This document shows positions 37,215 through 50,759 of a stretch of DNA of 64,000 nucleotides, piece by piece. The notes beneath the pieces were generated by a model. That model saw nothing but the letters and a program-made list of their open reading frames with translations, made no database searches and was not told the origin of the DNA. A program made the position numbers and the translations under genes. The first letter of the stretch is position 1, and each line of letters opens with the position of its first letter. Origin of the DNA: Candidatus Allofournierella merdipullorum (lineage in GTDB: Bacteria > Bacillota > Clostridia > Oscillospirales > Ruminococcaceae); assembly GCA_019116345.1 (NCBI GenBank), contig DXBV01000025.1, positions 1 through 64,000 on the forward strand. The letters are read 5' to 3'.

Positions 37215-37306
37215 ACCTTCCCAGAGAAAACGCCGGCCGGGACGGGCAATTTTTGCCCCCCGGCCGCATATGTTGTTGACAGCCCGGCTGCGGGCGGGGA
37301 GTGACG

Positions 37307-38677
37307 ATGAGCAAAAACCGAGTGATCTTTCTTGCCGGCGCGGCGGCGGCGCTGGCCGCGGCGGCGGGGCTTTTGTTCTGGCGGCAGAGCAGCCGGCTTA
37401 TGCTGGATTTTTCTTACAGCGACGAGGCCTTCGGCAACCCGCTGATGGGTTTTGCGCCCTCCGCCTGGCACAGCGAGGTGGCCGAGGACGTGACCCTGCT
37501 GTACATGGACATCACCTGGCGGGAGCTGGAACCGGAGGAAGGGGTGTTCGACTGGGCCGCCATCGAGGAGGAAAACCAGCTGGAGCGCTGGCGCAAGGAG
37601 GGCAAGCACATCCTGCTGCGCTTCGTGTGCGATCTGCCCGGCGACGAGGCTCACATGGACATTCCCGACTGGCTCTGGGAAAAGACCGGCGGCGCGGGCG
37701 TTGCCTATGACAACTCCTACGGCCGCGGCTTTTCGCCGGATTACAGCCACCCGGAGTTCATCGCCTGCCACCGGCGGGCGGTGGAGGCGCTGGGCGAGCG
37801 CTACGGCGGCGACGACTTCATCAGCTTCATCGAGCTGGGCAGCCTGGGCCACTGGGGCGAGTGGCACATCCGTTCCTCCCGGGGGCTGCCTCCCATGCCC
37901 CAGCGGGAAGTGCGGGAGCAGTACATCGAGCCCTGGACCGAGGCCTTTCCCAACGCCCGCATCCTGATGCGCCGCCCCTTCGCGGAGGCGAAGGAACACG
38001 GCTTCGGCCTGTACAACGACATGGCCGGCCACCCCGAGGCCACCGCCGAGTGGCTGGGCTGGATCGCCGAGGGCGGGGAATACGACCAGACCGGCGAGGA
38101 AAACGGCCTTGTGCCCATGACCGACGCCTGGCGGACCGCCCCGGTGGGCGGGGAGTTCACCAGCTCGCTGCCCATGGAGCAGATGCTGGACACGGACCTG
38201 GAGACCACCCTCGGCCTTCTGCGGGATTCCCACACCACCTTCCTGGGCCCCAAGATCGCCGACGAGGAGTTCCCCGAGGGCTACGACGCGGTGCTTTTGA
38301 GTCTGGGCTACCGGCTCTGGATCTCCCGGGCGGAAATTTCCCCCGGGCTGCTGGGCGGGGCGGACGTGACGCTGACCTGGCAGAACAGCGGCTCCGCGCC
38401 CCTGTACGCCGACTGGCCGGTGTACCTGCAGGCCGTGGACGAGGCGGGCCGGGTACTGGAACAGGCGCAGGTGGAACTGGAGCTTTCCGGCCTTTTGCCC
38501 GGCGAAACGGCCGAGACCGTCACCCGTCTGCCTTCCGCGAAGCTGCGGGGGAAAGACGCCTGCGCCGCGCTGCGGCTGGTCATCGTGGACCCGCTCACCG
38601 GCCGGCCGGCGGTGCGTTTTGCCAACCGGGAGGCGGCAGGGGAGGACACGGCGCTGGTTTTGTGGAAAGGATTGTAA
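37307..38677 (+). CDS. DUF4832-type glycosidase-like protein, membrane-anchored
   Basis: N-terminal TM; NPLMGFAPSAWHSEVAEDVTLLYMDITWRELEPEEGVFDW; FIELGSLGHWGEWH; C-terminal beta-sandwich-like region. Confidence 0.75.
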   Translation: MSKNRVIFLAGAAAALAAAAGLLFWRQSSRLMLDFSYSDEAFGNPLMGFAPSAWHSEVAEDVTLLYMDITWRELEPEEGVFDWAAIEEENQLERWRKEGKHILLRFVCDLPGDEAHMDIPDWLWEKTGGAGVAYDNSYGRGFSPDYSHPEFIACHRRAVEALGERYGGDDFISFIELGSLGHWGEWHIRSSRGLPPMPQREVREQYIEPWTEAFPNARILMRRPFAEAKEHGFGLYNDMAGHPEATAEWLGWIAEGGEYDQTGEENGLVPMTDAWRTAPVGGEFTSSLPMEQMLDTDLETTLGLLRDSHTTFLGPKIADEEFPEGYDAVLLSLGYRLWISRAEISPGLLGGADVTLTWQNSGSAPLYADWPVYLQAVDEAGRVLEQAQVELELSGLLPGETAETVTRLPSAKLRGKDACAALRLVIVDPLTGRPAVRFANREAAGEDTALVLWKGL

Positions 38678-38729: not shown

Positions 38730-38758
38730 TTCACAGATGGCGGTTTTTGTGCTATCAT
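38730..38758 (+). promoter_or_regulatory. pel operon promoter: TTCACA-17-TATCAT (extended TGc)
   Basis: Read directly, upstream of the GEMM-like aptamer. Confidence 0.65.
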
Positions 38759-38780
38759 GAGGTATACTGATATAAATTAT

Positions 38781-38854
38781 CGGCAAACACGGGCAAACCC
38801 GTGGACGCAAAGCCTTAGTGCCTAAACAGAGTTTTCTGCATGGTTGACTGGCCG
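38781..38854 (+). ncRNA. GEMM-like (cyclic di-GMP-I type) riboswitch aptamer with very short P1b
   Basis: CACGGGCAAACCCGTGGACGCAAAGCCTTAGTGCCTAAACAGAGTTTTCTGCATGGTTGACTGGCCG: conserved GGCAAACC, GGACGCAAAGCC, CCTAA and ATGGTTG blocks in order. Confidence 0.75.
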
Positions 38855-38883
38855 CAACGCTCTTTGTTGCGGCCGGTTTTTTT
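38850..38883 (+). terminator. Riboswitch expression-platform terminator
   Basis: ggccgcaac-gctcttt-gttgcggcc-gg-ttttttt; shares GGCC with the aptamer 3' strand. Confidence 0.85.
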
Positions 38884-38901: not shown

Positions 38902-41900
38902 ATGCCCACCGAATACGACGCTCTGACAATGACCGGCTCCGGCGGCGCGGTATCCTTTGCCCTCACAAAGATCTCCGCCGACAAAATGCCCGAGACCATC
39001 AACGGCGAGAGCGGCCACCACATCTGCTATGTGAAGGTGCTGACCGAGCTGATCGCCCGGGAGCTGACGCGGCAGACCGGCCGCTACGGCCTGGACGAGG
39101 AGAAGATCGGGCAGATCGCGCTGGCCTCCTGCCTGCACGACATCGGCAAGTCCCGTATTCCTCAGGCCATTCTGGAAAAGCGGGGCGTGCTGACCCCGGT
39201 GGAATACGACATCGTGAAAAAGCACACCACCCTGGGGGGCGAGCTGATCGACCGCTTCGGCGCTTCGCTGGACCCCCAGATCCGGGCCTATGCCCGGGAC
39301 GTGTGCCTGTTCCACCACGAGCGGTTCGACGGCACGGGCTATCCCCACGGGCTGAAGGGCAGCGACATCCCCATCTGGGCGCAGATCGTCTCCATTGCCG
39401 ACGCCTACGAGGCCATCACCTCCGAGCGCAGCTACAAAAAGGCCCTCTCCCGGGACGTGGCGCTGGAGATGATCTCCAACGGCATGTGCGGCGTGTTTGA
39501 CCCGCTGCTGGTCCAGTGCCTCATCCGGGTGGCGGACCACCGCCATCTGGAGGACATCCGCAGCAGCCTGATGACCTCCCGGGCGCTGCACATCGACCCC
39601 TACGCCCTGCCGCCCAAAAAGGTGCTGCTGATGGGCAACCTGCGGTATGTGACGCCTCAGTTCCTGGAGGACAGCTTCCCCGGCGCCCACATCTCCGTCA
39701 TCGGAAAATGCGCCCAGGACCCGGGCCGGGGCGTGAAGGTCTACGACGCGGAGGCCCCCAACTACAAGGCCATTCTGGGCACCTACGATTTTGACCTCAT
39801 CATCTACTTTTCCAACGAGCTGACCTACGACACCATCGCCCCCAGCGACACCGAGACCCTGCGCCAGGTGATGAAGGCCGGCAAGTACCTGGCGGGCGAG
39901 ACCAAGTTCCTCTATCTCTCCTCCCTGGACGCCGCCTTCGACGGCTCCAGCGACCGGGGCATCATCGCCGCCGCCAAGGAGAACGTCTGCCTTTACTGGG
40001 CAAGGCAGAACCACATCAACCTCAAGATCGTGCGCATCCCTTACCTTTACAACGGCGCCGCCGAGGACGACTTCCTCCACGACCTGTTCCAGGAGATGCG
40101 CACCCGCCGCACGGTGCGGCTGCGGGAGAGCGAGTCCTCCGAGCTGCACTTTCTCTCCCTGAGCGACCTTTCGGCGCTGATCGTGCGGCTGGCCGACTCC
40201 TGGGCGCCGGGCGAGGGCATCCTCACGGTGAACGACGATTTCCACATCACCTTCGGCCAGCTGTGCAAAGAGCTTGCCCCGCTGGCGCCGGGCGTGACCT
40301 TTGACTTCACCGGCAAGAACCCGCCCAAGCGTCTGGAGCTGAAGAACACCGCCCTCAAGCAGCAGTACAGCTGGTTCGCCGCCGTCTCGCTGCTCACCGA
40401 CCTGCCGGACGAATACCAGGCCTATCAGGCCAGCCTCGGGCCCCGGCGCTCTTTGTGGAAAAAGCTGGCGGCCCTTCTGGGACGGCACTCCACCCCGCTG
40501 CGCATCGCGGAGACGGCGCTTTTGTTCCTTCTCTGCGAATTTCTGGTGCGGCTCACCGACTCGGCGCTGTTTTTCTCGCTGGTGGACTTCCGCCTGGCGT
40601 ACATCGTCATCATCGCCACCCTCTACGGCCTGCCCTACGGCATGAGCGCCGCCGCCCTGTGCTCCCTTTCCTGGATCACCGCCAAGGTGCTGGACGGCAC
40701 CAGCTGGCTGACCCTGTTCTATGAACCCACCAACTGGCTCACCTTCATCTTTTTCTTCCTGGTGGGCGGCATCTGCGGCTATGTGAAGCTGAAAAAGGAC
40801 GACCAGATCCGCTTCACCACCGAGGAAAACCGCCTGCTGGAGGCAAAGCTGGCCTTTACCCGCCAGATCTACGAGGACACCTTCCGGGAAAAGCAGGATC
40901 TGAAAAAGCAGATCATCGGCTCGAAGGACAGCTTCGGCAAGATCTTCGACATCACCCGCCAGCTGAACACGGTGGACTCCCGGGAGCTGTATCTCAAGAT
41001 CGTGGACAGCTTCGAAGGCATTCTGGAAAACAAGACCCTCAGCGTCTATTCCATCAGCCAGGACAGCGGCTTCGGCCGGCTGGAAGTGGCCTCCCGCAGC
41101 ATCATGCACGACGTCTCCCGCTCCATCTCCCTGGACACCTACGCCCCGGTGATGGAGGCGGTGAACAAGGACGAAGTGTGGCGCAACACCCATTTTTTGC
41201 CCAACATGCCCATGTTCGCCTGCGGCATCCGCCAGGGCGACAAGCCCCTGCTGCTCATCTTCATCTGGAGCGCCCAGACGCACCAGCGCTCGCTGTATTA
41301 TGTGAACCTGTTCCGCATCCTGTGCGATCTGACCCAGATGTCCTTCATCCGCGCCCACGACTACAGCCGCGACATGCACGACCGGCAGTATGTGGGCCAC
41401 ACCGTTCTGCAGAACGCCGCCACCTTCCGCAATTCGCTGCACGTCTTCCGGGAATTGGAGGAGCGCCGGGTCTTTCAGTTCTTGCAGCTGAAGGTGGACG
41501 CCGGCGGCCGCTCCCAGGAGGAGCTGAGCAAACTGCTGGCCCGATGCGTGCGCACCAACGACGTGGCGGGCCTTCTGGAGGACGGCAGCGTCTGGCTGCT
41601 TTTGTCCCAGGCGGGGGAGGAGGACCTGAAATTCATTCTGCCCCGCTTCGAGCGGCTGGGCCTTTCGGCGCAGGTGACCCCGGTGCCCGACCCGGGCGAG
41701 CTGCCGGCCGCGCCTGTGACCGCCGGGCCTGCCCCGGAAAAAGCGGCCCCGGAGGCCGCGCCTTCCGCGGCCGCGGAAGAAAAACCGCCCCGGACGCCTC
41801 CGGCAAAAACGCCCAAGGCCCCGGTCAAAAAGCCGGCCCCGCCGCCGGCGCGCCGGCGGGCAAAGGCCGCGAAGAGCGCCTCCGGCCTTCTGGAACTTCT

Positions 41901-41928
41901 GGACCAGCTGCTGGGCGGGCGGCGCTGA
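38902..41928 (+). CDS. HD-GYP + epimerase-like + TM + GAF/degenerate-GGDEF PelD-like fusion
   Basis: HDIGK (39136-39150), HHERFDGTGYP (39313-39345); KKVLLMGNLRYV..; 4 TM; C-terminal RTNDVAGLLEDGSVW with RxxD (41551-41562). Confidence 0.85.
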   Translation: MPTEYDALTMTGSGGAVSFALTKISADKMPETINGESGHHICYVKVLTELIARELTRQTGRYGLDEEKIGQIALASCLHDIGKSRIPQAILEKRGVLTPVEYDIVKKHTTLGGELIDRFGASLDPQIRAYARDVCLFHHERFDGTGYPHGLKGSDIPIWAQIVSIADAYEAITSERSYKKALSRDVALEMISNGMCGVFDPLLVQCLIRVADHRHLEDIRSSLMTSRALHIDPYALPPKKVLLMGNLRYVTPQFLEDSFPGAHISVIGKCAQDPGRGVKVYDAEAPNYKAILGTYDFDLIIYFSNELTYDTIAPSDTETLRQVMKAGKYLAGETKFLYLSSLDAAFDGSSDRGIIAAAKENVCLYWARQNHINLKIVRIPYLYNGAAEDDFLHDLFQEMRTRRTVRLRESESSELHFLSLSDLSALIVRLADSWAPGEGILTVNDDFHITFGQLCKELAPLAPGVTFDFTGKNPPKRLELKNTALKQQYSWFAAVSLLTDLPDEYQAYQASLGPRRSLWKKLAALLGRHSTPLRIAETALLFLLCEFLVRLTDSALFFSLVDFRLAYIVIIATLYGLPYGMSAAALCSLSWITAKVLDGTSWLTLFYEPTNWLTFIFFFLVGGICGYVKLKKDDQIRFTTEENRLLEAKLAFTRQIYEDTFREKQDLKKQIIGSKDSFGKIFDITRQLNTVDSRELYLKIVDSFEGILENKTLSVYSISQDSGFGRLEVASRSIMHDVSRSISLDTYAPVMEAVNKDEVWRNTHFLPNMPMFACGIRQGDKPLLLIFIWSAQTHQRSLYYVNLFRILCDLTQMSFIRAHDYSRDMHDRQYVGHTVLQNAATFRNSLHVFRELEERRVFQFLQLKVDAGGRSQEELSKLLARCVRTNDVAGLLEDGSVWLLLSQAGEEDLKFILPRFERLGLSAQVTPVPDPGELPAAPVTAGPAPEKAAPEAAPSAAAEEKPPRTPPAKTPKAPVKKPAPPPARRRAKAAKSASGLLELLDQLLGGRR

Positions 41929-41963: not shown

Positions 41964-42863
41964 ATGCTTTGGTACGAAATCGTTTTTTGGGTGCTGCTGG
42001 CGGTGCATCTGCTCTGCTGCGCCCTCATCTACGTCGGCGTGCGCACCGGGATTTTGAAGGTGCGCCGGCTGATGGTGCCGGTGGCGCTGCTTGTCCCCTT
42101 CTGGGGCGAGGTGCTGGTGCTGGTGATGCATTTCCAGATCCTCTGCCGCCAGACCGACCGCAGCGAGGTGGGGGTGGAGAAGTTCCGGGTGGACTCGGAG
42201 CTCTACAAGGCCATCCAGCGGGACGACAGCCGGGTGTCCGGTTCCACCGTCTCCATGGAGGAGGCGCTGATCGTGAACACCCCCAAGGAGCGCCGCGCCC
42301 TCATCATGGACATCCTGAACGACAACCCCAAGGCCTATGTGGAATTTCTGAAGATGGCCGGCAACAACGACGACACCGAGGTGGTGCACTACGCCGTTAC
42401 CGCCATGGTGCACATCGCGAAGGAGAACGACCAGACCCTCTGGGAGCTGGAGCAGAAGTACGCCCAGAACCCCAACGACCCCCAGCTGCTGGCGACCTAC
42501 TGCGACTTTTTGTGGCGCTGCCTGGAGCAGGGGCTGATGCAGGGCCAGGTGGAGCGGATGAACCGCAACCTGTTTGACGCCCTCATCCAGAAAAAGATGC
42601 GCCTCGGCCCCGCCGTCGCATCCGACTATCTGCGCTGCATCCAGAACAACATGGAGCTAAAAAACTACACCGCGGCCGCCGCCAGCCTTGAGAACGCCCT
42701 GCGGTTCTGGCCCCGCAACGAGGACTTTTTGATCCAGAAGATCCAGTATCTGGCGGATCTGGGGCGGGGCGAGGAGCTGCAGGAGCTGCTGAGCCAGCTG
42801 GAGAAAAAAGACCTGTATCTCACCGCAAAGGTGAAAGAGGTGATCGCATTTTGGAAAGACTGA
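41964..42863 (+). CDS. pelE: PelE-like membrane/TPR protein
   Basis: N-terminal TM segments followed by helical repeats; position between PelD- and PelA-like genes. Confidence 0.65.
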   Translation: MLWYEIVFWVLLAVHLLCCALIYVGVRTGILKVRRLMVPVALLVPFWGEVLVLVMHFQILCRQTDRSEVGVEKFRVDSELYKAIQRDDSRVSGSTVSMEEALIVNTPKERRALIMDILNDNPKAYVEFLKMAGNNDDTEVVHYAVTAMVHIAKENDQTLWELEQKYAQNPNDPQLLATYCDFLWRCLEQGLMQGQVERMNRNLFDALIQKKMRLGPAVASDYLRCIQNNMELKNYTAAAASLENALRFWPRNEDFLIQKIQYLADLGRGEELQELLSQLEKKDLYLTAKVKEVIAFWKD

Positions 42864-44704
42864 GGGCGAAATTTGCCGCCTTTGAATACAAGGGCCTCGC
42901 GGCCATCGCTCTGGTGTTCGCCGTGATGGCGGCGCTTTTGTTCGTGGAGCGCAGCGGCATCCGCTATCAATACGACACCCGCTCGCTGACCCTTCTGCCC
43001 GCGGAGTCCGCCCCGTCCAAGGCCGAGGCGCTGGCCGATATGCCGAAGGACTGCCTTGTGCTGTACAACAGCAAGCGGGCGGACAGCCGCATGGCGCTGG
43101 AGGAGTTCGAGGTCATCCTCACCGACATGAAGGTGGGCCACGACACGGTGGACCTCTCCCGCGGCGGCTCCTGGTCCTTTAAGGGCTACAAGACGGCGGT
43201 GCTGCTGCTCAGCAATCTGTCGGACCTGGGGGACAAACTCATCGAGCTGGACGCCTGGGTCTACGAGGGCGGCGGGGCGCTGCTGCCCATGACCCTCTCC
43301 AAGGAGCCCTACTTCTCGGTGATGGAGCCCAAGTTCGGCATCGTGGAATCCTCCTACGACTACGCCCTGGCGGACTCCATCTATGTGACCGAAAACTTCA
43401 TGGTGGGCGGCGGCCGGGGCTTTGCCATCACCGAAAGCTGGGACTCCGCCCTGGTGGTTCGGGTGGACGAGTCCGACCGGGTGAAGGTGCACGCCTACAC
43501 CGACGACGACCGGCGGCTGCCCCTGGTGTGGGAGAGCCGCTACGGCAGCGGCCGCTTCGTGCTGGATAACCTGGGCATCTACACCAAAAACACCCGGGGC
43601 ATCTACGCCGCCTCCTACAGCCTGCTGACCCCCGTCACCGCCTATCCGGTGATCAACGCCTCCTGCTTTTATCTGGACGATTTTCCCTCCCAGATCCCCT
43701 CGGGCAGCAACGAGTATGTCTGGCGGGACTACGGCACCTCCACCCGGGACTTCTATGTGAACATCTGGTGGCCGGACATGATGAACCTGGCCGACCGCTA
43801 CGGCCTTGCCTACACCGGCCTTGCCATCCAGTGCTACGACGACCGGGTGGACGGCACCACCACCTCCGCGCCGGACAAGGAGACCTTTCTGAACTTCGGC
43901 AACATGCTGCTGCGCATGGGCGGCGAGATCGGCTACCACGGCTACAACCACCAGCCCCTGTGCCTGGACGACTGCGACTACAACGGCGTCTACGACTACA
44001 AGACCTGGCAGAGCGAGGACGCCATGGCCAGCGCCCTGGACACCCTGCTGGACCTGTGCGACGAGCTGTTCCCGGGGGTGGAGATGTCGGTGTATGTGCC
44101 GCCCTCCAACATCATGAGCGAAGGGGGCCAGGCGTTCCTCATCCGGGAGTATCCCCAGATCCGCTCCATCTCCGGCATCTATTTCGAGTCGGCCGATCTG
44201 GATTTCTACTGCACCCAGGAGTTCGACGTGCTGGAAAGCGGCGTGGTGGCCCAGCCCCGCATCATCTCCGGCTGTGATATGGACGACTTCATGAAACTGG
44301 CGGCCCTCTCGGAGCTGAACTTCCACTACGTCAACAGCCACTTCACCCATCCCGACGACTCCCTGGACCCCGAGCGCGGCGCACAGCTGGGCTGGGAGGA
44401 ACTGAAATCCCGCTTCACCGGGTATCTGGACTGGCTCTACACCGCCGCGCCCAACATCCGCAACTTCACCGGCAGCGAGATGGCGGCGGCGGTGCAGCGG
44501 TTCGCTGGCGTCACCGTCTCCACCGAGGCGACGGGCGATACCTTCAAGATCCGGCTGGGCAACTTCACCGACGAGGCCTGGCTGATGGTGCGCTTCAACG
44601 ACGCCGCCCCCCAAGAGGTGGAGGGCGGAGCGCTGGAACAGCTCACCGACACGCTGTATCTGCTGCGGGCGGACCAGCCCGACGTGACCGTGACATTGGC
44701 ATAG
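42851..44704 (+). CDS. PelA-like DUF2194 protein (TTG start)
   Basis: N-terminal TM; GKAEALADMPKDCLVLYNSKRADSRMALEEFEVIL; GGEIGYHGYNHQPLCLDD; polysaccharide-deacetylase-like. Confidence 0.75.
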   Translation: MERLRAKFAAFEYKGLAAIALVFAVMAALLFVERSGIRYQYDTRSLTLLPAESAPSKAEALADMPKDCLVLYNSKRADSRMALEEFEVILTDMKVGHDTVDLSRGGSWSFKGYKTAVLLLSNLSDLGDKLIELDAWVYEGGGALLPMTLSKEPYFSVMEPKFGIVESSYDYALADSIYVTENFMVGGGRGFAITESWDSALVVRVDESDRVKVHAYTDDDRRLPLVWESRYGSGRFVLDNLGIYTKNTRGIYAASYSLLTPVTAYPVINASCFYLDDFPSQIPSGSNEYVWRDYGTSTRDFYVNIWWPDMMNLADRYGLAYTGLAIQCYDDRVDGTTTSAPDKETFLNFGNMLLRMGGEIGYHGYNHQPLCLDDCDYNGVYDYKTWQSEDAMASALDTLLDLCDELFPGVEMSVYVPPSNIMSEGGQAFLIREYPQIRSISGIYFESADLDFYCTQEFDVLESGVVAQPRIISGCDMDDFMKLAALSELNFHYVNSHFTHPDDSLDPERGAQLGWEELKSRFTGYLDWLYTAAPNIRNFTGSEMAAAVQRFAGVTVSTEATGDTFKIRLGNFTDEAWLMVRFNDAAPQEVEGGALEQLTDTLYLLRADQPDVTVTLA

Positions 44705-44723: not shown

Positions 44724-46166
44724 ATGCGCATCTGTTTGGTGCTGGAGGGGTGTTACCCCTACGTGAACGGCGGTGTTTCCACCTGGATGCACCAGTACAT
44801 AACCGAAATGCCGCAGCACGAGTTCGTGCTGTGGGTCATCGCCGCGAAGCGGGAGGACAAGGACAAATTCGTCTATGAACTGCCCTCCAACGTGACCGAG
44901 ATCCACCAGGTGTTTCTGGACGACGCGCTGCGCCTGAAGGGCGACGGCGTGATGGACCACGCCTTCACCCCCGCCGAGGCCCGGGCGCTGGAGGAGCTGA
45001 TCGGCTCCGGCAGCCCGGACTGGGACCTGCTGTTTTCCATGTATCAGGTGCGGCGCATCGCCCCCATGGCCTACCTGAAAAGCGAGGCCTTTTTGCGGGA
45101 GTTCGAGGAAAGCCTGGAGCGCAACTACCCCTACATCGCCTACGCCGACGCCTTCCACTCCACCCGTTCCCGGCTGCTGCCGGTGCTGTATCTGCTGGGC
45201 ACCGAGGTGCCCAAAGCCGACTGCTACCACTCCATCTGCACCGGCTACGGCGGGCTGCTGGCGACCCTTGGGGCCCACCTTTACAAAAAGCCCCTGCTGC
45301 TCACCGAGCACGGCATCTACACCCGGGAGCGGGAAGAGGAGATCATCGGCGCCCAGTGGGTGGGCAAGGCCTTCAAGCAGCACTGGATCCGCTTTTTCTA
45401 CATGCTCTCCTCCCTCATCTACACCCGGGCCTGGCGGGTCACCAGCCTCTACCGGGGGGCCATGGAGATGCAGATCGACATGGGCGCCGCCCGGGAGAAG
45501 TGCTCGGTCATCGCCAACGGCATCAGCTACGAAAAGTTCTGCGCCATCCCCCGCAAGGAGGAAAACGGCATGGTGGACATCGGCGCGGTGGTGCGCTTTG
45601 CCCCCATCAAGGACATCAAGACCATGATCTACGCCTTCTACGAGCTGTGCAGCCGGATGGACAACGTGCGGCTGCACATTCTGGGCGGCGTGGACGACCA
45701 GGAATACGCCGACGAGTGCCTTGCCCTCATCGACCAGCTGGGCCTTGGGGAAAAGGTGCTGGTGCCCGGCCGGGTGGACATGGTGGCGTATTTCCAAAAG
45801 CTGGACTTCACCATTCTGTCCTCCCTGTCGGAGGGCCAGCCGCTGTCGGTGCTGGAGTCCTTCGCGGCGGGGCTGCCGGTGGTCACCACCGACGTGGGCT
45901 CCTGCAGCGAGCTGATTTTGGGCGTTCCGCCGGACGACTTCGGCCGGGCGGGCTACTTTGTGCCCCCCATGCAGCGGGAAAAGATGGCCGACGCCATGGA
46001 GCAGCTGGCTTCTTCCCGCAAGCTGCGGCTGGAACTGGGCCGGCAGGGGCAGCTGCGGGCCTCGGCCTACTTCCGCTACAACATCATGCTCTCAAAATAC
46101 TGCGCGCTCTACGAGGAGGTGGAGACCCTTGGCCGGTATCGGCTTCGAGTTGAAGAAACTGTTTAA
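44724..46166 (+). CDS. pelF: PelF GT4 glycosyltransferase
   Basis: MRICLVLEGCYPYVNGGVSTWMHQYI; LTEHGIYTREREEEI; VVRFAPIKDIKTMI; SLSEGQPLSVLESFAAGLPVVTTDVGSC. Confidence 0.95.
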   Translation: MRICLVLEGCYPYVNGGVSTWMHQYITEMPQHEFVLWVIAAKREDKDKFVYELPSNVTEIHQVFLDDALRLKGDGVMDHAFTPAEARALEELIGSGSPDWDLLFSMYQVRRIAPMAYLKSEAFLREFEESLERNYPYIAYADAFHSTRSRLLPVLYLLGTEVPKADCYHSICTGYGGLLATLGAHLYKKPLLLTEHGIYTREREEEIIGAQWVGKAFKQHWIRFFYMLSSLIYTRAWRVTSLYRGAMEMQIDMGAAREKCSVIANGISYEKFCAIPRKEENGMVDIGAVVRFAPIKDIKTMIYAFYELCSRMDNVRLHILGGVDDQEYADECLALIDQLGLGEKVLVPGRVDMVAYFQKLDFTILSSLSEGQPLSVLESFAAGLPVVTTDVGSCSELILGVPPDDFGRAGYFVPPMQREKMADAMEQLASSRKLRLELGRQGQLRASAYFRYNIMLSKYCALYEEVETLGRYRLRVEETV

Positions 46167-47589
46167 GCGCACCGGCGTGCTGGCCTCCCTGCGCGCCTTC
46201 GGCTACGCCACCGTCATCACCACCGGCCCCATGCTGCTGGGCATCGTGCTGCTGCTGGGGCTGATGCTCATCTGCGTGCTGGGCCGGGTGTCCACCAGCG
46301 ACCGGGAGCTGCTGGTCTGCATGATCACCTATGTGCTGCTGGCCTCGGTGACGGTGACCTCCTTCCTTTCCATGGTGGTCACCCGCTTCACCGCCGACAT
46401 GCTCTTCGAGGAACGAAACGACTGTGTGCTGCCCTCCTTCTGGGGTTCCTCGCTGCTGATGCTGGCGGCGGGCGGCGTTCTGTGGGGGGTGTTCCTGGTG
46501 TTCTCCGGGGCCACCTTCGTGCAGGGCGTTCTGCTGTTCGTGCTGTTTCAGGAGCTGGTGCTGGTGTGGAACGCCATGAGCTACCTCACCGCCATCAAGG
46601 ACTATCGCAATATGTTCCGCTCCTTCTTCGTGGCCATCGGCCTGGCGCTGGCGCTGGGCTTCGTGCTGGTGTGGCTGGGCGGGCCGCCCATCGAATCGCT
46701 GCTGCTGGCGGTGTCGGTGGGCTACGGGGTCAAGGCCGCGTGGGACGTGGTGCTGCTCTACCGGCATTTCCCCCGCTCAAACGCGCCGGCCTTCGCCTTT
46801 CTGGAATGGATGGACAAATTCCCCGCCCTGGCCTGGATCGGATTCTTCACCAACATCGGCCTGTTCTCCCATCTGGTCATCATGTGGGCCAGCGAGGTGG
46901 GCGTGCGGGTGAAAGGGCTGTTTTTCGGCGCGCCCTACCACGACATCCCCGCCCTCATCGCCTTTCTCACCATCCTCATCACCACCGTGAACTTCGTGGT
47001 GTCGGTGGAGGTGAACTTTTACCCCAAATACCGCAACTACAACAGCCTTTACAGCGACAAGGGCACCGGCCGGGACATCCTGCAGGCGGAAAAGGAGATG
47101 CTGGCGGTGCTGAAAAGCGAACTGTTCTACACCTCCCTCAAGCAGCTTTTGTTCTCCGCTTTGGCCATCTCCCTGGGCGGATACCTGCTGGACCTGGTGC
47201 CCCTGGGCTTCAACGAGGTGATGAAGGGCTACTTCCGCACCCTGTGCGTGGGCTACGGCCTCTACGCCATCGGCAACATGCTCATGCTCATCCTTTTGTA
47301 TTTCATCGATTACAAGGGCGCGCTGCGGGCCGCCGCCGCCTTCGCCGCCGGGTCGGTGGGATTTTCGGTGATCTCGCTGTTTTTTCCGTCGGTGTACTAC
47401 GGGTTCGGCTTTCTGCTGGCGGCGCTGCTCTTTCTGGTGCTGGCGCTGATCCGGCTGAACTACTACATCAAGCGCCTGCCTTACTACATCCTCTGCGTGC
47501 AGCCGCTGGTGGAGGAAACGGCCCACGGCCCCGGCAAGCGGGCCGGGGGCTGGCTGGAACAACACTTTGGAGAGGAGAGAAACGAATGA
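46129..47589 (+). CDS. pelG: PelG exopolysaccharide transporter (likely TTG start)
   Basis: AGIGFELKKLFKRTGVLASLRAFGYATVITTGPMLL; polytopic; AGGAGGT upstream of TTG 46129. Confidence 0.93.
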   Translation: MAGIGFELKKLFKRTGVLASLRAFGYATVITTGPMLLGIVLLLGLMLICVLGRVSTSDRELLVCMITYVLLASVTVTSFLSMVVTRFTADMLFEERNDCVLPSFWGSSLLMLAAGGVLWGVFLVFSGATFVQGVLLFVLFQELVLVWNAMSYLTAIKDYRNMFRSFFVAIGLALALGFVLVWLGGPPIESLLLAVSVGYGVKAAWDVVLLYRHFPRSNAPAFAFLEWMDKFPALAWIGFFTNIGLFSHLVIMWASEVGVRVKGLFFGAPYHDIPALIAFLTILITTVNFVVSVEVNFYPKYRNYNSLYSDKGTGRDILQAEKEMLAVLKSELFYTSLKQLLFSALAISLGGYLLDLVPLGFNEVMKGYFRTLCVGYGLYAIGNMLMLILLYFIDYKGALRAAAAFAAGSVGFSVISLFFPSVYYGFGFLLAALLFLVLALIRLNYYIKRLPYYILCVQPLVEETAHGPGKRAGGWLEQHFGEERNE

Positions 47590-49364
47590 GGGCAAAACGA
47601 ACGCTATGTCTCGCGCTGGCCGCCACTCTGGCGCTTTCGCTGGCGGGCTGCGCCGTGGACCTGCCGGCCGCTTCCGCGCCCCAAAGCGAGGCGGGCGGGG
47701 AGAGCAGCCCGGTGGTGAAAGAGGAGACCGCCACCCTGGACGAACTGCATCTGCGGGACAATGCCCTGCTCTACGAGGGCCACGACCCCGCCCAGGTGGT
47801 CACCATGTATCTGACGGTGTCCACCGGCAACTCCTCCGAAAACACCGACCACACCTGGCGGGAGATCAACAGCTACTCCGTCTATGACTACGAGGCGATG
47901 GGTGTGGACCGCTATCAGGTGGCGGGTCTGCTTCAGGTGGGGGACGAGAACGGCCCCCTGCCCGACGAGCTGGGCTTTGGCCAGTCGGCGCCCAACTGCA
48001 CGGTGCAGATCCGCGGCCAGACCTCCAGCTCTCTGCCGCAGAAGAACTACAAGATCAGCGTGAAGGACAACAAGGGCGAATGGAACGGCCAGACCACCAT
48101 CGCCCTGAACAAACACCAGAGCGACGGCCTGCGCTTCCGCAACAAGATGGCCTACGACCTGATGGCGGGCATCGACGAGATGCTGGGCCTGCGCACCACC
48201 TTCGTGCATCTGTATGTGAAGGACACCACCGCCGGCGGCAGCGGCCAGTTCGTGGATTACGGGCTCTACACCCAGGTGGAACAGCTGAACAAGACCGCCC
48301 TGAAAGCCCACGGGCTGGACAAAAACGGCCACCTTTACAAGATCAACTTCTTCGAGTTCTACCGCTACGAGGACGTCATCCGCATGGCGGACGATCCCCT
48401 CTACGACCTGACCGCCTTTGAGCAGCTGCTGGAGGTGAAGGGGGACGACGACCACACCAAGCTCATCCAGATGCTGGAGGCGGTGAACGACTACACCCGG
48501 CCGGCGGAGGAGGTGTTGGAGGAATACTTCGACATTGAGAACCTGGCCTACTGGATGGCCTTCCACCTGCTGGTGAACAACCGGGACACCCAGAGCCGAA
48601 ACGTCTACATCTACAGCCCCCTCAACTCCAACAAGTGGTACTTCTATTCCTGGGACAACGACGCCATGCTCAAGCGGACGGAATACGCCCTGAACGGCCG
48701 CTCGGACGGCCTTGGCTGGGAGAACGGCGTGAGCAACTACTGGGGCAACGTGCTGTTCCAGCGGGCGCTGAAGACCGAGACCTTCCGCACGGCGCTGGAC
48801 GAGGCGGTGGAGGACCTGCGGGCCTATCTTTCTCCCCAGCGCATCAACGCCATGGCGGCGGAGTACAGCGAGATCGTCAAGCCCTATGTCTACCGCATGC
48901 CCGACGCGCAGCATGCCCCCCTCACCCAGGCGGAGTACGACCAGGTGGCCGCCGCGCTGAGCAGCGAGATCGAGACCAACTACCGCATCTACAAGGAATC
49001 CTTCAACAATCCCATGCCCTTCTTCATCGGCGTGCCCCGCAAGGAAGAAGGCCAGATGGTCTATCAGTGGGACTCCGCCTATGACTTCGACGGCGAGTCC
49101 GTCACCTACACCTTCGAGCTTGCCTCCGACTACACCTTTGCCGACCCCATCGTCCGCCAGGAGGGTCTGGTGATTCCGGAATACAAAGGCGAGACACTGC
49201 CCGCCGGGCAGTACTTCGTGCGGGTGACCGCCACCAACGCCAGCGGCTGCGAGCAGTACGCCTTCGACTACTATGTCATCGAAAGCGGCAAGGTCTACGG
49301 CGTCAAGTGCTTCTATGTGAACGAAGACGGCGCCATCGTGGAGGACGAGTATGTGGAAGGCTGA
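47586..49364 (+). CDS. CotH kinase family lipoprotein
   Basis: LALSLAGCAVD lipobox; CTVQIRGQTSSSLPQKNYKISVKD; DSYSWDNDAML-like WYFYSWDNDAML. Confidence 0.92.
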   Translation: MRAKRTLCLALAATLALSLAGCAVDLPAASAPQSEAGGESSPVVKEETATLDELHLRDNALLYEGHDPAQVVTMYLTVSTGNSSENTDHTWREINSYSVYDYEAMGVDRYQVAGLLQVGDENGPLPDELGFGQSAPNCTVQIRGQTSSSLPQKNYKISVKDNKGEWNGQTTIALNKHQSDGLRFRNKMAYDLMAGIDEMLGLRTTFVHLYVKDTTAGGSGQFVDYGLYTQVEQLNKTALKAHGLDKNGHLYKINFFEFYRYEDVIRMADDPLYDLTAFEQLLEVKGDDDHTKLIQMLEAVNDYTRPAEEVLEEYFDIENLAYWMAFHLLVNNRDTQSRNVYIYSPLNSNKWYFYSWDNDAMLKRTEYALNGRSDGLGWENGVSNYWGNVLFQRALKTETFRTALDEAVEDLRAYLSPQRINAMAAEYSEIVKPYVYRMPDAQHAPLTQAEYDQVAAALSSEIETNYRIYKESFNNPMPFFIGVPRKEEGQMVYQWDSAYDFDGESVTYTFELASDYTFADPIVRQEGLVIPEYKGETLPAGQYFVRVTATNASGCEQYAFDYYVIESGKVYGVKCFYVNEDGAIVEDEYVEG

Positions 49365-50076
49365 GCGTTACCGCCACGAGTGGAAATACCTCATCGACAC
49401 CGCCCAGAAGGAGGCCATCTGCAGCCGCCTTGGGCCGGTGATGCAGCTGGACCCCCACGCGACGAACGGCGGCTACACCCTGCGCAGTTTGTATTTTGAG
49501 GACTACTTCCATTCCGCCTATTCGGAAAAAGAGGCGGGCATTCTTCTGCGAAAGAAGTACCGCATCCGCATCTACGACTACTCCGACCGCAGCATCAAGC
49601 TGGAGCGCAAAAAGAAGACCGGCAGCTACATCTACAAAGAGGCCGCCCGGCTGACCCGCCAGCAGGTCTACCAGATTTTGGACGGGGACTACGGCTTTCT
49701 TCTGGCCAGCGACCAGCCGCTGTGCCAGGAGTTCTACTACGAGTGCATGAGCAACGTGATGCGCCCGCGCACCATCGTGGACTACGAGCGTCAGCCCTGG
49801 ATCGTGGACGCGGGCACCGTGCGCATCACCTTCGACATGAACGTGCGCGCGGCGGTGGGCAGCTTCGACATCTTTGACCCCACCCTGCCGGGCCTGCCGG
49901 TGCTGGAGCCGGGCAAATGCGTCATGGAAGTAAAGTTCACCGAGTTCCTGCCGGACTTTGTGCGGCAGGTGCTGCCCGACCGGGCTTCGGAGTTCACGGC
50001 CGTTTCCAAATACGTGCTGTGCTACGAAAAAACCGCCTATCAAAACGATTTTGAACACTATTGGTTCGAAAATTAG
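49351..50076 (+). CDS. VTC (polyphosphate polymerase-like) domain protein
   Basis: RHEWKYLIDTAQKEAICSRL..; RKKYRIRIYDYSDRSIKLERKKKTG; VMEVKFTEFLPDFV. Confidence 0.92.
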   Translation: MWKAERYRHEWKYLIDTAQKEAICSRLGPVMQLDPHATNGGYTLRSLYFEDYFHSAYSEKEAGILLRKKYRIRIYDYSDRSIKLERKKKTGSYIYKEAARLTRQQVYQILDGDYGFLLASDQPLCQEFYYECMSNVMRPRTIVDYERQPWIVDAGTVRITFDMNVRAAVGSFDIFDPTLPGLPVLEPGKCVMEVKFTEFLPDFVRQVLPDRASEFTAVSKYVLCYEKTAYQNDFEHYWFEN

Positions 50077-50087
50077 GAGCGTGTGAA

Positions 50088-50759
50088 ATGAGCGTTCAAG
50101 ATTTCATCAAAAAATCCATTCTGGAGTCCGGCGCCTTCGACCAGGCCACCATCCTGGAGATCACCATCGGCCTGCTCACGGCCCTTCTGGCGGGCGCGCT
50201 GATCTATCTGGTCTACAGCAAGTTCTACGTGGGCGTGATCTACTGCCGCAGCTTCGCCATCACCCTGGTGGGCATGACGGTGCTCACCGCCATGGTCACC
50301 CTGGCCATCAGCACCAACATCGTCATCTCCCTCGGTATGGTGGGCGCCTTGTCCATCGTGCGTTTCCGCACCGCCGTCAAGGACCCGCTGGACCTGCTGT
50401 ATCTCTTCTGGGCCATCACCACCGGCATCGCCTCCGGCGCCCAGATGTATGTGCTGGTGGCCGCGGCGGCGATCATCATGATCCTGCTCATCGCCCTCTT
50501 TCGCAAGCATCAGCTCAAGGGCCGCATCTACATCGCCGTCATCCACTACACCGGCGAGGAGACCATGGAGAACGTCATCCGCTCCTTCGGCAAGGTGAAG
50601 TACTTCATCAAATCCCAGACCGCCCGCAAGGACTCCACCGAGATGGCGGTGGAACTGTTCTTCAAAAAATACGACCCCCTGTTCCTGGAGCGCCTTCGCG
50701 CGGTGAGCGGCGTGCAGGACGCCACCCTCATCCAGTACAACGGCGAGTACCACGGCTGA
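50088..50759 (+). CDS. DUF4956 membrane protein
   Basis: TM-rich; ISLGMVGALSIVRFRTAVKDPLDLLYLFWAITTGIASGAQMY. Confidence 0.92.
   Translation: MSVQDFIKKSILESGAFDQATILEITIGLLTALLAGALIYLVYSKFYVGVIYCRSFAITLVGMTVLTAMVTLAISTNIVISLGMVGALSIVRFRTAVKDPLDLLYLFWAITTGIASGAQMYVLVAAAAIIMILLIALFRKHQLKGRIYIAVIHYTGEETMENVIRSFGKVKYFIKSQTARKDSTEMAVELFFKKYDPLFLERLRAVSGVQDATLIQYNGEYHG

What the first reader, a model, noticed from the sequence alone, without database searches (positions are those of the whole stretch)
38781..38883. GEMM-like c-di-GMP riboswitch controlling the Pel operon, with an unusually short P1b
Seen: GGCAAACC-CGT-GGACGCAAAGCC ... GCCTAA ... ATGGTTGACTGGCC followed by a terminator. Established: these blocks are hallmarks of cyclic di-GMP-I (GEMM) aptamers, which normally have a longer P1b hairpin with a GNRA loop docking into the CCTAA..ATGG receptor. 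Here only about 2 bp plus a triloop fit between the blocks. The terminator 5' arm (GGCC at 38850-38853) overlaps the aptamer 3' strand, predicting a ligand-ON switch.
Basis: partly seen in the sequence, partly recalled or inferred. Interest (0 to 1): 0.75.

Follow-up and report, generated by a model that had tools for sequence, protein, structure and literature searches.

The report
c-di-GMP riboswitch before a Pel operon
This is a normally built c-di-GMP-sensing RNA switch (class I) placed before a Gram-positive biofilm-polysaccharide (Pel) operon, where it probably lets transcription through when c-di-GMP is high; the 'unusually short hairpin' was a misreading, but the pairing of this switch with Pel operons recurs in many gut bacteria.

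Summary
The riboswitch is real. Rfam c-di-GMP-I (RF01051) matches window 38772-38859(+) over its full length at 58.7 bits (cut-off 35, E 6e-9). The claimed oddity is not. That gives the standard 6-bp P1b/P2 (CACGGG/CCCGUG, 38788-38803) with a CAAA loop. All 96 distinct aptamers extracted from related genomes have the same 16-nt spacing. The residues equivalent to G20, A47 and C92 are present. A 14-bp terminator (38846-38878) uses the aptamer's 3' strand, including the C92 equivalent, so a ligand-ON switch is predicted. The operon behind it is a Gram-positive pel operon. Its first gene fuses an HD-GYP c-di-GMP phosphodiesterase to an epimerase-like domain and PelD, with the c-di-GMP-binding RxxD conserved. 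Of 80 related pel loci, 13 carry such a riboswitch upstream, with the same terminator overlap in every one tested; the trait changes at least 8 times on the PelF tree. I found no report of this pairing in the paper library searched. Verdict: a new member of a known riboswitch class, with an interesting and recurrent gene context. Binding and regulation are untested.

The parts
38730..38758 (+). Probable sigma-70-type promoter (TTCACA-17-TATCAT, extended -10)
   Evidence: 10 of 12 consensus matches, TG before the -10; puts the transcript start at about 38765. Consensus match only.
38772..38859 (+). c-di-GMP-I riboswitch aptamer
   Evidence: RF01051, 58.7 bits, gathering score 35, model positions 1-87 of 87
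38782..38782 (+). G equivalent to Vc2 G20 (ligand contact; c-di-GMP versus cGAMP selectivity)
   Evidence: Model position 11 in the alignment; residue numbering from PMC4744006 and PMC6274999
38788..38803 (+). P1b/P2 hairpin, CACGGG-CAAA-CCCGUG, 6 bp
   Evidence: alignment, fold (-8.8 kcal/mol), spacing in 96 aptamers
38809..38809 (+). A equivalent to Vc2 A47
   Evidence: Model position 38
38812..38852 (+). P3 (second hairpin of the P2-P3 scaffold) with the CCUAA/AUGG tetraloop receptor
   Evidence: Pair list; interhelical C38806-G38846 also present
38855..38855 (+). C equivalent to Vc2 C92 (Watson-Crick partner of the ligand)
   Evidence: Model position 83; pairs with G38869 in the terminator
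38846..38883 (+). Intrinsic terminator (14-bp stem 38846-38878 plus U tract) sharing the aptamer 3' strand
   Evidence: -23.5 kcal/mol, z -6.5; overlap
38902..41928 (+). First gene of the operon: HD-GYP phosphodiesterase, epimerase-like domain, transmembrane segments, GAF and degenerate GGDEF (PelD) in one protein
   Evidence: PF13487 3.9e-26; HD-GYP structures 4mcw, 5z7c, 4r8z; HDxGK/HHExxDGxGYP and RTND conserved; best fold match is PelD 4etz/4dn0
41964..42863 (+). pelE-like gene (TPR)
   Evidence: Weak TPR match and position; homologues in the same place in pel loci
42851..44704 (+). pelA deacetylase-type gene (DUF2194)
   Evidence: PF09960 5e-145
44724..46166 (+). pelF glycosyltransferase
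   Evidence: NF038011 PelF 302 bits, cut-off 100
46132..47589 (+). pelG
   Evidence: PF16933 445.7 bits; exact start codon not settled
47586..50759 (+). Accessory genes cotH (47586-49364), VTC polyphosphate polymerase (49351-50076), DUF4956 (50088-50759)
   Evidence: PF08757, PF09359, PF16316; same accessory set as in PMC7112168
37301..38677 (+). DUF4832 gene immediately upstream of the promoter
   Evidence: PF16116 8.5e-14; known pel accessory gene (PMC7112168)

Best explanation
A standard class I c-di-GMP riboswitch forms the 5' leader of a Gram-positive pel operon and acts as a transcriptional ON switch. Transcription starts near 38765 and the aptamer is complete by about 38856. With c-di-GMP bound, P2 and P3 dock, C38855 pairs with the ligand, the 3' strand is held, the terminator cannot form, and RNA polymerase reads into the HD-GYP-PelD gene and the rest of the operon. 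Without ligand, the same 3' strand forms the 14-bp terminator and transcription stops at the U tract. The ligand then acts again on the protein made, through PelD's RxxD site. The fused HD-GYP domain probably degrades c-di-GMP, giving local negative feedback. Shown by computation: the aptamer, the terminator, their overlap, the operon, and the conserved HD-GYP and RxxD motifs. Inferred: ligand binding, switching, direction of control, enzyme activity and feedback.
For: RF01051 at 58.7 bits, full length. G20, A47, C92 and interhelical C-G equivalents present. Terminator of 14 bp with U tract, 5' arm inside the aptamer 3' strand and containing C38855. Folding along the transcript: aptamer and best fold within about 2 kcal/mol up to 38873, then the terminator wins by 10.9 kcal/mol. 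This is the layout of the pilM ON switch, where the terminator sequesters the ligand-pairing C75 (PMC9262584). The same overlap is found in all 15 pel-associated aptamers tested, three of them orthologous leaders in L083, L089 and L138. Of 71 c-di-GMP-I hits in 80 pel-bearing genomes, 15 lie just upstream of pel; by arithmetic about 0.25 would be expected by chance. Own genome has 4 GGDEF matches, so c-di-GMP can be made. PelD assignment: best fold matches are P. aeruginosa PelD 4etz and c-di-GMP-bound 4dn0, E 1e-7.
Against: No binding or termination data. P1 does not form in the fold and the position equivalent to Vc2 A18 is U; both are common (no P1 detected in Cd1, PMC9262584; U in 41 of 96). 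The tetraloop is CAAA, not GNRA, unique among 96, and might lower affinity. The terminator is very strong, so readthrough could be low. The B. thuringiensis Bc1 riboswitch binds c-di-GMP yet hardly changes its genes in vivo (PMC11218506). Whole-model fold TM-scores to PelD are low (0.35), reflecting uncertain domain placement.
Confidence: 0.86

Rival explanations
1. A structurally unusual GEMM variant with a 2-bp P1b.
For: The string GGCAAACC-CGT-GGACGCAAAGCC exists.
Against: A second GGCAAAC ten bases upstream gives a full 6-bp P1b in the expected place with posterior near 1; identical 16-nt spacing in 96 of 96 aptamers.
Confidence: 0.01
2. The switch prefers another dinucleotide such as 3',3'-cGAMP, or is promiscuous.
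For: An orthologous leader (L089) has A at the G20 position, the change that marks cGAMP-type GEMM-Ib aptamers; 13 of 96 aptamers have it.
Against: The window itself has G at that position.
Confidence: 0.06
3. A decaying or weakly responsive riboswitch: aptamer still recognisable but the strong terminator acts as a near-constitutive attenuator.
For: Score below that of most relatives (58.7 against up to 84 in relatives; up to 93.7 elsewhere); unique CAAA loop; a related locus (L071) keeps promoter and terminator but no aptamer.
Against: Every contact residue and every helix except P1 is intact; the 3' strand is identical to that of three orthologues.
Confidence: 0.07
4. OFF switch or translational control instead of transcriptional ON.
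For: c-di-GMP-I-type riboswitches of both signs exist (Cd1 OFF, pilM ON; PMC9262584).
Against: No antiterminator competes with the aptamer; the only strong alternative hairpin is the terminator built from the aptamer strand; the start codon and ribosome site lie downstream of the U tract.
Confidence: 0.03

Closest known systems
c-di-GMP-I riboswitch, Rfam RF01051 (GEMM-I; Vc2, Cd1, Bc1)
   Same: Full-length model match, P2/P3 scaffold, CUAA/AUG receptor, G20/A47/C92 equivalents, interhelical C-G pair
   Different: CAAA instead of GNRA tetraloop; U at the A18 position; no evident P1 (as in Cd1)
pilM riboswitch of Geobacter metallireducens (GEMM-Ib, transcriptional ON; PMC9262584)
   Same: Terminator 5' arm takes the ligand-pairing C of the aptamer, so bound ligand prevents termination
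   Different: pilM has A at the specificity position and senses cGAMP; the window has G and lacks a clear P1
Gram-positive pelDEADAFG operon (B. cereus and others; PMC7112168)
   Same: Same core order, epimerase-containing PelD, accessory cotH, polyphosphate polymerase, DUF4956 and DUF4832 genes
   Different: PelD carries an N-terminal HD-GYP domain and a c-di-GMP riboswitch precedes the operon; neither is described in that paper's text
PelD of Pseudomonas aeruginosa (4dn0, 4etz)
   Same: GAF plus degenerate GGDEF fold and RxxD c-di-GMP site
   Different: No sequence-level match to PelD in Pfam or the PDB; fused to HD-GYP and epimerase-like domains

Membership tests
c-di-GMP-I riboswitch (RF01051) | Covariance-model score above the curated threshold | tested here: met
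   58.7 bits against 35
c-di-GMP-I riboswitch (RF01051) | P1b/P2 hairpin of normal length with docking loop | tested here: met
   6 bp, same 16-nt spacing as 95 others; loop CAAA
c-di-GMP-I riboswitch (RF01051) | GNRA tetraloop and receptor | tested here: inconclusive
   Receptor present with A.C at its last pair (7 of 31); loop is CAAA, only one of 96; docking not testable
c-di-GMP-I riboswitch (RF01051) | Ligand-contact residues G20, A47, C92 | tested here: met
   G38782, A38809, C38855 (numbering PMC4744006)
c-di-GMP-I riboswitch (RF01051) | P1 helix (usual but not required: Cd1 has no detectable P1, PMC9262584) | tested here: inconclusive
   No P1 pairs predicted in the free RNA; in pilM P1 forms only with ligand (PMC9262584)
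c-di-GMP-I riboswitch (RF01051) | Binds c-di-GMP | not testable with these tools
   Needs in-line probing or ITC
Transcriptional ON riboswitch | Terminator mutually exclusive with the ligand-bound aptamer, no antiterminator | tested here: met
   (structure prediction only)
Gram-positive pel operon | pelD, pelE, pelA-deacetylase, pelF, pelG in order | tested here: met
   pelE by position and a weak TPR match; PelD by fold
PelD c-di-GMP receptor | RxxD inhibitory-site motif in a degenerate GGDEF domain | tested here: met
   RTND in the window; R and D invariant in 16 PelD-like sequences
HD-GYP phosphodiesterase | HDxGK and HHExxDGxGYP motifs | tested here: met
   HDIGK and HHERFDGTGYP; activity not tested

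The most novel reading that the evidence does not exclude
In gut Clostridia the same second messenger controls Pel at two levels within one operon: an RNA switch that opens transcription, and a PelD receptor that is physically fused to a c-di-GMP phosphodiesterase which limits the signal. The RNA level has been gained or lost many times on pel operons and has in places changed its specificity base (G20A in L089).
Probability: 0.45. Interest if true: 0.5.

Novelty: new member of a known kind. Interest (0 to 1): 0.34.

Why it matters
Pel control by c-di-GMP is known at the protein level through PelD. A recurrent c-di-GMP riboswitch in front of Gram-positive pel operons would add a transcriptional layer, and the HD-GYP-PelD fusion a built-in off signal. 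It gives a compact, testable model of how gut bacteria tie biofilm polysaccharide to c-di-GMP. As an RNA element it is ordinary.

Tried and rejected
Short P1b: rejected. Altered ligand specificity of the window's own aptamer: no support, G at position 20. A18-to-U as a special feature: rejected, 41 of 96 have it. Unusual receptor pair A.C: rejected, 7 of 31. Covariance model R1 captured only 8 pairs because MAFFT shifted the P3 columns, so it was not used; Rfam's own model was used through the genome search instead. Sequence searches for PelD's C-terminal half against Pfam and PDB found nothing useful; fold comparison did. A first pattern search for aptamers in pel loci was mis-typed and found none of the real ones; corrected. 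No paper in the searched library joins a c-di-GMP riboswitch with a pel operon, as far as titles, abstracts and the passages read show; the library lacks most subscription journals.

Full report
What is there. The region 38772-38859(+) is a full-length match to Rfam's c-di-GMP-I riboswitch (RF01051), 58.7 bits against a gathering score of 35, E 6.4e-9 for the whole window, and the only Rfam match above threshold in the 64 kb. A probable extended -10 promoter lies at 38730-38758, and a 14-pair intrinsic terminator at 38846-38878 is followed by a U tract. The coding sequence starts at 38902. The genome as held (84% complete) has one such riboswitch.

The claimed oddity. GGCAAAC occurs twice, at 38782 and at 38792. 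With the first, P1b (P2 in structural papers) is CACGGG/CCCGUG with a CAAA loop, 38788-38803, aligned at high posterior and stable alone at -8.8 kcal/mol. I extracted 96 distinct aptamers from fetched loci with a pattern that allowed 10 to 30 nt between [AG]GCAAA and G[AG]CGCAAA. Every one had 16 nt, including the window. The pattern is centred on the family's own conserved blocks, so this describes recognisable members. The CAAA loop is the one real departure: 1 of 96, against 82 GAAA and 3 UAAA. The three closest orthologous leaders have GAAA.

Ligand pocket. Equivalents of Vc2 G20, A47 and C92 (contact residues as listed in PMC4744006) are G38782, A38809 and C38855. The interhelical pair is C38806-G38846. 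G at position 20 points to c-di-GMP rather than cGAMP. U at the A18 position occurs in 41 of 96. No P1 is predicted; Cd1 of Clostridium difficile also shows no P1 and still binds (PMC9262584).

How it switches. The terminator's 5' arm is the aptamer's 3' strand and includes C38855. When the leader is folded at increasing lengths, aptamer and best fold stay within about 2 kcal/mol up to 38873; beyond that the terminator wins, by 10.9 kcal/mol at full length. No antiterminator is seen. Ligand captured between about 38856 and 38873 should therefore block termination: a kinetically controlled ON switch, like pilM, where the terminator sequesters C75 (PMC9262584). These are energy-model results, not measurements.

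The operon. Pfam and NCBIfam give HD-GYP, DUF2194 (PelA deacetylase type), PelF, PelG, CotH, VTC and DUF4956, with DUF4832 just upstream. This is the Gram-positive pel layout of PMC7112168. The first gene encodes 1008 residues: HD-GYP (solved relatives 4mcw, 5z7c and 4r8z), an epimerase-like stretch, membrane segments, GAF and degenerate GGDEF. The C-terminal part has no sequence match, but its predicted structure (pLDDT 79) finds P. aeruginosa PelD first (4etz, 4dn0, E 1e-7). TM-scores are low, so I rely on ranking and domain order. The epimerase-like label rests on the position and on PMC7112168, not on a test here. HDxGK and HHExxDGxGYP are intact in 12 of 13 fused proteins (L089 has HHERYDATGYP), and the RxxD site in all. 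PMC7112168 describes epimerase-PelD but does not describe an HD-GYP fusion in the text read.

How general. PelG occurs above the family cut-off in 4 of the genomes searched among relatives and 15 in the class sample; the four same-genus genomes lack both PelG and the riboswitch. A scan of 85,462 species genomes with PelF gave 80 pel loci, the best 80 of more. Searching those genomes with RF01051 gave 71 hits; 15 of them, in 13 loci, lie on the pel contig close to and mostly upstream of pel. By simple arithmetic (71 hits, about 9 kb in 2.6 Mb) about 0.25 would be expected. G296 adds one more locus. In all 15 aptamers tested the terminator is built from the aptamer's 3' strand (the L123 hit and the divergent L109 copy were not tested). 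On a PelF tree the riboswitch label needs 10 changes, at least 8 forced by supported branches, so gain or loss is frequent. Riboswitch loci also carry HD-GYP genes or fusions more often than others (9 of 18 against 4 of 62, counted); these counts are not independent.

What is new. The RNA class and the pel operon are known. Their repeated combination, and PelD fused to an HD-GYP domain, I did not find in the searched papers, which lack most subscription journals. I file the RNA as a new member of a known kind.

Noticed in passing
window 38902-41928; L083-L090, L093, L138, L149, L071: PelD is fused to an N-terminal HD-GYP phosphodiesterase and an epimerase-like domain in at least 13 loci; only four of these (window, L083, L089, L138) have the riboswitch.
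   Followed up: partly
L089:3285-3371 (same locus as L072:6879-6965): Orthologous pel riboswitch with A at the G20 position, the change typical of cGAMP-type GEMM-Ib; 13 of 96 aptamers share it. Its HD-GYP motif also reads HHERYDATGYP.
   Followed up: partly
L071, about 100-200 bases upstream of the HD-GYP-PelD gene: Promoter and a terminator like the riboswitch's (GGCTGCAAC-TTTTTTT-GTTGTGGC-T6) remain but the aptamer is absent, as if deleted.
   Followed up: partly
L039:13245-13478 (same contig as L146): Two near-identical c-di-GMP-I riboswitches in tandem, each with its own terminator, upstream of a pel operon.
   Followed up: no
L109:556-652 and about 1967-2064: Two c-di-GMP-I riboswitches facing opposite ways, one of them heading a pel operon.
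   Followed up: no
window 37301-38677: DUF4832 accessory gene lies upstream of the pel promoter rather than at the end of the operon, as PMC7112168 reports for S. gallolyticus; in many loci it lies downstream.
   Followed up: no
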